From: Paracoccus sp. MBLB3053
GTDB taxonomy: Bacteria; Pseudomonadota; Alphaproteobacteria; Rhodobacterales; Rhodobacteraceae
Direction of reading: 5' to 3'
NCBI RefSeq assembly: GCF_031822435.1
Contig: NZ_JAVQLW010000001.1
Location: forward strand, 567,501 to 631,500
DNA length: 64,000 nt
Within the stretch, counting starts at the first letter, position 1, and every line of letters begins with the position of its first letter. Both the position numbers and the translations under genes were made by a program. Positions 1 through 61,897 of this stretch are shown one piece after another. The notes under the pieces are model-generated. The model had not been told where the DNA came from. It did no database searches and saw only the letters and a list, made by a program, of their open reading frames with translations.

Positions 1-834
1 GCGATCATTCTGACCGTGCTGGGGTTGAACACGGCCCGGAACGCCGCCGGATGGCAACCAATCACCCATACCCCCGCCCAGCGTGAGGCAATGCTTGCGG
101 GTTCATGGCGCATCATGCATCCGAACACCCCTGGCCCCCACAAAGCGGCGATCCTGCTTTCGGGATGCGACGGAGTTCATGACAACATGGATTACTGGGC
201 CGGGATCATGCTCGACCGGAACCGGATGGTCATGGTCCTGGACAGCCACATTCCGCGGCGTCTCGATCGCGTTCAGGCGTGGCGGGCGGTCTGCGCGGGA
301 CAGGTGCTGCCTGGCTCGGAACGCGCGGGCGACCTTGCCGTTGCCCTCGACGCCCTGCACCGCATGCCCGGGGTGGACCCATCCGAGACGCTTGTGCTTG
401 GCGCGTCGCATGGCGGCTGGACCGCGATGGAACTGATGTCCGAACTGAACGAACCTATGCCGCCACCCGGACTTTCGGCATGGCCCCGGCCACCCGCGGA
501 ACTCGCCGCCCAGATCGGCCCGCTGGTCCTGCTTTATCCCTATTGCGGGATGCTCAGCCATGGCGACGAAGCGCGCTGGCCACAGCATGTGAGCGGGCTG
601 ATGATCCTTGCCCAGAATGACAGCATCACCGATCCCACTGCGTGCCGCAGCATGGCCGACAAGCTGGTCGGAAAGGCCGCCGATCTGCACATGGTCACCC
701 TGCCCGGCACCAATCACGGCTTCGATCAAAGCGAGCGATCGGCGCTGTCCTCGCTTGAGTTCGACCCGGCTGCCCGCAGCAAGGCGACGGGTCTGGTGGA
801 GGATTTCCTGCAGGATTTTGCATCTGCCCATTGA
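1..834 (+). CDS. Alpha/beta hydrolase, dienelactone-hydrolase-like (5' end missing)
   Basis: The reading frame is open to the left edge, so the gene probably starts outside the window. A GTG at 16 is possible, but the preceding codons continue a hydrophobic stretch (AIILTVLGL) that looks like the end of a signal or anchor segment. Counting from 16, a G-A-S-H-G nucleophile elbow (Ser about 131), an acidic residue in NDSITD (about 202-206) and a His in GTNHGF (about 234) form a plausible Ser-Asp-His triad in the right order for a dienelactone-hydrolase-type fold. Substrate unknown. It lies 41 bp upstream of fmt on the same strand and may be co-transcribed with it. An overlapping open frame on the other strand has no recognisable motifs. 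Confidence 0.72.
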
Positions 835-61476: not shown

Positions 61477-61505
61477 TTGCCCCCCGTCACGCATCGCCCT
61501 ATATC
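61477..61505 (+). promoter_or_regulatory. Promoter of the gdx transcript
   Basis: TTGCCC (61477-61482), 17-bp spacer, TATATC (61500-61505). Predicted start at about 61511-61513, directly at the first riboswitch stem, so the leader would consist of the riboswitch alone. Confidence 0.6.
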
Positions 61506-61510
61506 TTTGA

Positions 61511-61576
61511 TCGAGGACGACCTCACCCACACGGCGACCAGGCGGGACGGCCCGATCTTATCGACGGAGATCAGGC
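61511..61576 (+). ncRNA. Guanidine-II (mini-ykkC) riboswitch
   Basis: Two hairpins with ACGR loops, the defining feature of mini-ykkC RNAs: GAGG-ACGA-CCTC at 61513-61524 and CGGG-ACGG-CCCG at 61543-61554, 18 nt apart. The Shine-Dalgarno GGAGA (61566-61570) follows 11 nt after the second, so guanidinium binding should free it and switch on translation of the downstream exporter gene. This matches the known association of the class with SugE/Gdx genes. Confidence 0.85.
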
Positions 61577-61897
61577 ATGGCTTGGTTCTTTCTCATCATC
61601 GCAGGACTTCTTGAGGTCGTCTGGGCCTATTCCATGAAGAAGTCCGCCGGCTTCACGCTTCTTGTCCCCAGCATCGTGACCCTCGTCACGATGCTCGGCA
61701 GTTTCGCTTTGCTCGCGCTTGCGATGCGCAGCCTTCCTCTGGGCACGGCCTACACGATCTGGACAGGGATCGGCGCAGTCGGTGCATTCCTGCTGGGGAT
61801 CACCTTTCTTGGCGAGGCAGTCACCCCGCTGCGCCTGATCGCCGCGCTTCTCATCATCAGCGGAATCGTCGCGATGAAACTCGGCGGTGGCAACTGA
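61577..61897 (+). CDS. gdx: Guanidinium exporter Gdx (SugE, SMR family)
   Basis: 106 residues, four membrane helices. Starts MAWFFLIIAGLLEVVWAYSM with the essential Glu14 in the first helix, and GTAYTIWTGIGAVGA (about 57-71) is the Gdx/SugE form of the SMR signature. Exports guanidinium in exchange for protons. The guanidine-II riboswitch directly upstream supports this assignment over a general multidrug pump. Converges on urtE with a 42-bp gap. Confidence 0.94.
   Translation: MAWFFLIIAGLLEVVWAYSMKKSAGFTLLVPSIVTLVTMLGSFALLALAMRSLPLGTAYTIWTGIGAVGAFLLGITFLGEAVTPLRLIAALLIISGIVAMKLGGGN

What the first reader, a model, noticed from the sequence alone, without database searches (positions are those of the whole stretch)
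61477..61897. Guanidine-II riboswitch with its promoter in front of gdx
The two ACGR-loop hairpins (loops at 61517-61520 and 61547-61550) and the exporter gene are seen directly. That mini-ykkC RNAs sense guanidinium and control Gdx is established. The predicted transcription start coincides with the first hairpin, so the leader is a minimal riboswitch; this is inference. The hairpins have short 4-bp stems, so the sequence would be easy to miss in routine annotation.
Basis: partly seen in the sequence, partly recalled or inferred. Interest (0 to 1): 0.75.

Follow-up and report, generated by a model that had tools for sequence, protein, structure and literature searches.

The report
Guanidine riboswitch before guanidine exporter gene
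This is a small RNA switch that senses the toxic compound guanidine and very likely turns on the pump gene next to it; that is known biology, but the same kind of switch also sits before an unrelated family of pumps in this and many related bacteria, which hints at a second kind of guanidine pump.

Summary
Confirmed. Window 61509-61555 (+) matches Rfam Guanidine-II (RF01068) at 33.3 bits (gathering score 32), 21 nt before a Gdx/SugE-type exporter gene (61577-61897). It is a new member of a known kind.

The start-site inference gains comparative support: in 44 of 45 genus leaders the best sigma70-like -10 ends 6-12 nt before the P1 core, and P1 is mostly 4-5 bp, so transcription probably starts at P1. 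In 24 leaders outside the class only 6 have such spacing, and P1 has a median of 8 bp. Folding suggests that the 3' side of P2 masks the Shine-Dalgarno, but this vanishes when coding sequence is included.

New: the same genome has a second guanidine-II riboswitch before a PACE (PF05232) transporter. So do 13 of 24 PACE-bearing genomes of the genus sample and 70 of the 80 nearest PACE relatives returned; at order level 37 of 94 riboswitch matches precede PACE. I saw it in none of 46 PACE-bearing genomes outside the class, and found no mention in the held papers searched. It predicts that a PACE clade exports guanidinium or a guanidino compound; transport is untested.

The parts
61477..61482 (+). 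-35-like hexamer TTGCCC of the presumed sigma70-type promoter
   Evidence: sequence; a TTG at about the same distance from P1 recurs across the genus leaders; not found by the strict scanner
61500..61505 (+). -10-like hexamer TATATC, 17-nt spacer, ends 7 nt before the P1 core
   Evidence: sequence; -10 to P1 gap 6-12 nt in 44 of 45 leaders
61511..61513 (+). predicted transcription start (inference from the -10; not mapped)
   Evidence: inference
61509..61555 (+). Guanidine-II (mini-ykkC) riboswitch aptamer, Rfam RF01068
   Evidence: 33.3 bits, gathering score 32, full model length
61513..61524 (+). P1 hairpin GAGG-ACGA-CCTC, loop 61517-61520
   Evidence: sequence, cmscan alignment, several stem pair types across leaders
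61525..61542 (+). linker between P1 and P2
61543..61554 (+). P2 hairpin CGGG-ACGG-CCCG, loop 61547-61550
61550..61576 (+). predicted ligand-free hairpin (61550-61552 with 61574-61576, 61554-61559 with 61567-61572) that uses the 3' side of P2 and masks three of four Shine-Dalgarno bases
   Evidence: strand folding minimum-energy structure of 61512-61579 (z -1.28, 22 of 200 shuffles fold at least as well, so weak); like structure in L042 and L049, not in L044 and L048
61566..61569 (+). Shine-Dalgarno GGAG, 7 nt before the ATG
   Evidence: sequence
61577..61897 (+). gdx (sugE-type SMR) guanidinium exporter gene, 106 aa
   Evidence: ORF; PF00893; SugE model, under its cut-off; PDB SMR chains aligned over residues 1-102

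Best explanation
It is a guanidine-II (mini-ykkC) riboswitch at the very 5' end of the gdx mRNA. Most likely RNA polymerase starts at or within 2 nt of P1. Without guanidinium the leader folds so that the 3' side of P2 (in this leader), or the 3' side of P1 plus linker (in part of the relatives), pairs near the Shine-Dalgarno and translation is low. Two guanidinium ions bound at the ACGA and ACGG loops join P1 and P2 by a kissing interaction, which keeps those strands in their hairpins, frees the Shine-Dalgarno and turns on translation of the exporter, which pumps guanidinium out. Shown here: the aptamer, its position, the gene family, the conserved promoter spacing. Established elsewhere for the class: guanidinium binding; proposed or supported there: kissing loops and translational ON control. 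Inferred: the start site and the exact masking strand.
For: Rfam hit over gathering score; Gdx/SugE-type protein directly downstream; of 48 genus matches 33 precede a gdx-like gene, 13 a PACE gene, 1 (L009) a gene for urea-amidolyase-associated protein UAAP1, 1 (L054) neither; promoter spacing locked in 44 of 45 leaders; varied but pairing stem bases; class mechanism in passages of PMC7266159, PMC12186494, PMC9094411 and PMC9561414. For this leader, forcing the aptamer raises computed Shine-Dalgarno openness from 0.25 to 0.64 when the RNA ends at the start codon.
Against: With 18 nt of coding sequence the computed openness of this leader falls instead (0.25 to 0.08), and with 36 nt it fell in 18 and rose in 10 of 44 genus leaders. 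In 56 of 130 leaders neither masking strand is predicted at over 0.5. Duplexes of the P1 3' strand with the Shine-Dalgarno are no better than duplexes between different leaders. The fold is not unusually stable (z -1.28). The strict promoter scan finds nothing. No ligand test was possible.
Confidence: 0.9

Rival explanations
1. A diverged or dead mini-ykkC relic that still matches the model but no longer switches gdx, so gdx is constitutive.
For: Score only 1.3 bits over the cut-off; P1 core of 4 bp; folding of leader plus coding sequence does not show a consistent switch.
Against: Both loops and both 4-bp cores intact; relatives keep loops, stems, promoter spacing and the gene; a P1 of 4-5 bp is the rule, not decay: 27 of 32 gdx leaders and 89 of 98 PACE leaders, among leaders that passed a 4-bp selection rule.
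Confidence: 0.05
2. The riboswitch acts on transcription (termination or RNA stability) rather than on translation start.
For: A terminator-like site is listed at 61569-61587 on the + strand, at the start of gdx.
Against: That stem has 8 pairs with only 3 G-C, lies over the start codon and has an imperfect T run; the class is described as translational (passages); the Shine-Dalgarno begins 11 nt after P2.
Confidence: 0.08
3. Chance pair of ACGR hairpins in GC-rich DNA.
For: GC-rich sequence; short stems.
Against: Own-genome E 1.2e-4; a two-hairpin rule was met in 96 of 144 real upstream stretches of PACE genes but in none of 7200 shuffles of them; genus-wide gene association.
Confidence: 0.01

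Closest known systems
Guanidine-II (mini-ykkC) riboswitch, Rfam RF01068, as in E. coli (sugE) and Pseudomonas aeruginosa
   Same: two ACGR hairpins, linker, Shine-Dalgarno just downstream, SMR exporter gene next (class features from passages)
   Different: P1 mostly 4-5 bp against a median of 8 in 24 leaders outside the class; promoter abuts P1, so the 5' flank needed for the P0 helix proposed for Pseudomonas (passage) would hardly be transcribed (inference)
Gdx guanidinium exporters of the SMR family (Gdx-Clo; that PDB 6wk5 and 8vxu are Gdx-Clo is recalled, the PDB table calls them SMR family multidrug resistance proteins)
   Same: aligned over residues 1-102 without gaps; E13, W16, S42, Y59 and W62 are shared there (their role in guanidinium binding is recalled; a look-up of these names in PMC7695847 found none)
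   Different: ordinary divergence; transport not tested
PACE transporters (AceI, PA2880; PF05232)
   Same: the second riboswitch of this genome precedes a two-repeat BTP protein, 156.9 bits, NCBIfam PACE_transport over cut-off
   Different: AceI and PA2880 were studied as chlorhexidine/biocide pumps, with diamines as possible natural substrates and LysR-type genes flanking PACE in A. baumannii (passages); here control is by a guanidine riboswitch, which I did not see at the PACE genes sampled outside the class

Membership tests
Guanidine-II riboswitch (RF01068) | covariance-model score at or above the gathering score | tested here: met
   33.3 vs 32 bits
Guanidine-II riboswitch (RF01068) | two hairpins each with an ACGR loop | tested here: met
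   ACGA 61517-61520, ACGG 61547-61550
Guanidine-II riboswitch (RF01068) | helices kept by compatible changes in relatives | tested here: met
   pairing above shuffles at P1 pairs 3-4 (both sets) and 5, P2 pair 6 (gdx) and pairs 4-6 (PACE); P1 pair 6 is not above shuffles in either set and gdx P2 pair 5 is not; pairs 1-4 were required by the selection rule and relatedness was not corrected for
Guanidine-II riboswitch (RF01068) | next to guanidine-related genes | tested here: met
   gdx here; 33 gdx-like, 13 PACE, 1 UAAP1, 1 neither of 48 genus matches
Guanidine-II riboswitch (RF01068) | binds guanidinium | not testable with these tools
   needs in-line probing
Guanidine-II riboswitch (RF01068) | ligand frees the Shine-Dalgarno | tested here: inconclusive
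   supported when folding stops at the start codon, not with coding sequence added
Gdx subtype of SMR | sequence closer to Gdx than to EmrE | tested here: met
   chains 8vxu and 6wk5 at 107-110 bits, EmrE chains 48-51 bits; SugE model best of 22 but 118.6 bits under its cut-off of 126
Gdx subtype of SMR | guanidinium/proton antiport | not testable with these tools
   needs transport assay

The most novel reading that the evidence does not exclude
Alphaproteobacteria have a guanidine regulon in which guanidine-II riboswitches, starting at the first transcribed bases, control not only gdx but a clade of PACE transporters; these PACE proteins are a second, unrelated family of guanidinium (or guanidino-compound) exporters, which would give part of the PACE family a physiological substrate and explain why PACE pumps recognise the bis-biguanide chlorhexidine.
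Probability: 0.55. Interest if true: 0.68.

Novelty: new member of a known kind. Interest (0 to 1): 0.45.

Why it matters
The window element itself is routine. What follows from it is less so. What PACE pumps do besides pumping biocides was called undescribed in a 2018 review (passages); a 2022 paper notes short-chain diamines as possible physiological substrates (passage). A guanidine-specific riboswitch in front of many PACE genes of alphaproteobacteria turns that question into a direct transport test. The promoter-abutting leader also suggests how little RNA a working riboswitch may need, and argues against a P0-type platform in this lineage.

Tried and rejected
A Shine-Dalgarno switch through the 3' strand of P1 as the general rule: duplex energies between P1 3' strand and Shine-Dalgarno region (44 leaders) were no better than between leaders at random (mean -5.9 vs -6.1 kcal/mol; 433 of 500 permutations as strong or stronger), though stronger than with mono-shuffled sequence (-4.6). 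With folding cut at the start codon, forcing the aptamer changed openness by more than 0.1 upward in 13 and downward in 4 of 32 gdx leaders, and in 46 up and 2 down of 97 PACE leaders; with 18 nt of coding sequence it was 6 up and 6 down of 32, and 30 up and 25 down of 97. Shuffling the linker about halved the gain (gdx 0.143 to 0.071, PACE 0.179 to 0.073); swapping the Shine-Dalgarno stretch between leaders did not lower it in gdx (0.184) and lowered it somewhat in PACE (0.141). I therefore keep the mechanism as literature-based with local support.

Functional replacement of gdx by PACE in the genus: 13 of 61 genomes have riboswitch-PACE, 33 riboswitch-gdx, 4 both; Fisher p 0.069, not significant. 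The only two of 61 genomes without any SMR match (G039, G043) both have riboswitch-PACE, which fits but is two cases.

A single origin of riboswitch-PACE: not shown; the label needs 11 changes on the tree (shuffled mean 32.6). The eight weaker RF01068 matches of the own genome (19.2 bits and less) were not followed. Full urea/guanidine carboxylase in the own genome: no match over the cut-off for TIGR02712 or TIGR03424, so assimilation was not pursued.

Full report
Observation. The sequence at 61513-61554 has the two hairpins as described, GAGG-ACGA-CCTC and CGGG-ACGG-CCCG. cmscan of the whole window against Rfam 15 gives one match at gathering threshold: RF01068 Guanidine-II at 61509-61555 +, 33.3 bits, gathering score 32, E 0.0071, whole model. 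After 21 nt follows the ATG of a 106-aa SMR protein, PF00893 92.7 bits. Its best NCBIfam model is SugE, 118.6 bits against a cut-off of 126, and it aligns to PDB chains 8vxu and 6wk5 (Gdx-Clo, name recalled) at 107-110 bits against 48-51 bits for EmrE chains. The finding is real and well placed.

Genus comparison. In 61 genomes of the genus, 42 have an RF01068 match at E <= 0.01 and 32 have one over the cut-off. The genes after all 48 matches are 33 gdx-like SMR, 13 PACE, 1 UAAP1 (L009; urea-amidolyase-associated, 230 bits against a cut-off of 205.95) and, for L054, neither, probably chance.

Promoter and start. The best sigma70-like site in the 60 nt before P1 ends 6-12 nt before the 4-bp P1 core in 44 of 45 leaders, most often 8; in shuffles a gap of 3-13 nt occurs in 26%. 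The exception is L026 (gap 2); L055, without a detectable first loop, and L009 and L054 were left out. With a slightly different rule (gap 5-12) the counts are 31 of 32 gdx, 12 of 12 genus PACE, 64 of 73 named PACE and 9 of 10 order-level PACE leaders, against 16-20% in shuffles (only leaders that passed the two-hairpin rule with enough upstream sequence). In 24 leaders from outside the class the gap is 5-12 in 6, and the median P1 is 8 bp; in 5 loci of the class outside the family the gap is 5-12 in 4, but the median P1 is 9 bp, so the short P1 is not a feature of the whole class (one of 30 loci, L171, gave no pair under the rule). P1 is 4 or 5 bp in 27 of 32 gdx leaders and 89 of 98 PACE leaders. 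So a start at P1 is a lineage feature, inferred from sequence and not mapped. The window promoter itself matches 8 of 12 consensus positions, and the strict scan lists none.

Expression platform. The class is described as translational, with a putative linker anti-Shine-Dalgarno (PMC9094411, passages) or, in Pseudomonas aeruginosa, a proposed P0 helix of the 5' and 3' flanks (PMC9561414, passages). A P0 helix needs 5' flank that would hardly be transcribed here. For the window leader the minimum-energy fold keeps P1, breaks P2 and pairs the 3' side of P2 with the Shine-Dalgarno stretch. L042 and L049 fold alike; L044 keeps P2 and has only the inner Shine-Dalgarno hairpin; L048 differs. Over 130 leaders, masking by the 3' side of P2 at over 0.5 is predicted in 30 (4 of 32 gdx, 4 of 12, 19 of 75 and 3 of 11 PACE), by P1 3' side or linker in 44 (14, 1, 24, 5), and by neither in 56 (14, 7, 32, 3). 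In leaders cut at the start codon, aptamer formation raises mean computed openness from 0.34 to 0.48 (32 gdx) and from 0.27 to 0.45 (97 PACE), about twice the gain seen with shuffled linkers. With 18 nt of coding sequence the gain all but disappears (0.39 to 0.40 and 0.30 to 0.33), and with 36 nt it is 10 up, 18 down of 44. I call this inconclusive.

The second riboswitch. The own genome holds one more match over the cut-off, at contig 1 2136400-2136450, 32.7 bits, before a gene (ORFs) for a PACE protein: PF05232 156.9 bits, NCBIfam PACE_transport over its cut-off. In the genus sample 24 of 61 genomes have PACE; 13 of these carry the riboswitch directly upstream. The loci of the other 11 show no RF01068 at E <= 1. 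In one of these, L057, a divergent ORF has a LysR-type HTH; several others have similar upstream stretches but were not tested.

Breadth. A scan of genome contigs with a PACE alignment found 419 relatives and kept the best 80 (ranked by likeness to a riboswitch-linked query, so a biased set; L070 is the same locus as L046; by record titles mostly Rhizobiales and Rhodobacterales, orders recalled). cmscan at E <= 1 finds RF01068 ending 9-23 nt before the gene match in 70 of 80 (17/20, 17/20, 17/20, 19/20), 42 of them at or over the gathering score. A rule of two ACGR hairpins finds 74 of 80, 12 of 13 genus riboswitch genes, 0 of 11 genus genes without a match, 10 of 31 genus- and order-level genes without a strict match, 0 of 9 genes from outside the class, and 0 of 7200 shuffles; those 31 are a part of the order-level PACE genes, and cmscan gives weak RF01068 matches in five of them (L189, L193, L199, L204, L201; 22.7-28.6 bits). 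At order level (341 genomes) RF01068 at E <= 0.001 has 94 matches in 86 genomes, and PACE is in 79 genomes (whose list of places was cut). 37 matches in 34 genomes lie directly before PACE (which was given only PACE rows of genomes that also had a riboswitch row). At phylum level (349 genomes; RF01068 in 71, PACE in 58), reading the coordinates by eye gives adjacency in G000, G043, G067, G074, G495 and G643, all of the same class, and in none of 46 PACE-bearing genomes listed as same phylum only; that RNA search used stricter filters that lose weak matches. All 61 riboswitch rows lie in a branch of 88 rows (support 99/93) that also holds 26 without it and one of the 9 rows from outside the class. 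The own PACE groups with rhizobial and Roseobacter-type rows rather than with the main genus clade. Forks are poorly resolved (147 columns).

Is it in print? Searches of the held library: 'PACE transporter' with guanidine and riboswitch, 0 papers; guanidine riboswitch with chlorhexidine, 0; PF05232, 2 papers, one seen in the listing, the other (PMC6195760) looked through for 'riboswitch', 0 occurrences; 'PACE family' with riboswitch, 2 papers seen in the listing only; COG4125, 0; the full PACE name with guanidin, 12 papers, 10 seen in the listing, of which I read passages of PMC9045395. PMC7266159 and PMC12186494 were looked through for PACE: 0 and 1 occurrence, the one being an author's name. 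The passages of PMC2864571 and PMC3766115 that I saw name emrE, speB, multidrug transporters, urea and agmatine use; PACE was not among the terms asked there. The 2017 validation paper is not held, and supplements could not be read, so an earlier table entry is possible.

Reading. The window element is an ordinary guanidine-II riboswitch for gdx. Its regulon in this lineage very probably includes PACE pumps. A chemical link exists: three Gdx homologs other than Gdx-Clo carry singly substituted biguanides (PMC10829512, passages), and PACE pumps carry chlorhexidine (PMC6195760, passages), a bis-biguanide (recalled). A rival for the PACE part is export of a guanidino compound such as agmatine or guanylurea, or of diamines, with guanidinium only as signal.

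Noticed in passing
L002:1501-1551 (own genome contig 1, 2136400-2136450), outside the window: Second guanidine-II riboswitch over the Rfam cut-off, directly before a PACE/BTP transporter gene.
   Followed up: yes
L009 (genus genome G025): Guanidine-II riboswitch (42.8 bits) before a urea-amidolyase-associated protein UAAP1 gene, likely a guanidine-use operon.
   Followed up: partly
order-level genome G253, contigs 15, 22 and 30: Three PACE genes in one genome, each with its own guanidine-II riboswitch match.
   Followed up: no
L082 and L116: Upstream stretches of PACE genes with a damaged first hairpin (L082) or a changed loop and no second hairpin (L116): likely decaying riboswitches.
   Followed up: no
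L083, L091, L124, L094, L111: PACE leaders with a much longer stretch between the two ACGR hairpins, perhaps able to form an extra hairpin (by eye).
   Followed up: no
L057 3-407 (-): A genus PACE gene without riboswitch is divergent from an ORF with a LysR-type HTH.
   Followed up: partly
window:61940-63999 (-): Urea ABC transporter genes urtE and urtD and a urtC-like piece lie convergent to gdx; not under this riboswitch.
   Followed up: no
window:61937-61960 (-): Terminator-like stem of 10 pairs with a T-rich tail at the 3' end of urtE, between gdx and urtE.
   Followed up: no
window:60971-60980: Run of ten C bases after the cold-shock gene, possible slippage or assembly-sensitive site.
   Followed up: no
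own genome contig 1, 2484811-2485086 (L038): A second SMR gene; the own-genome RF01068 search lists no match near it.
   Followed up: no
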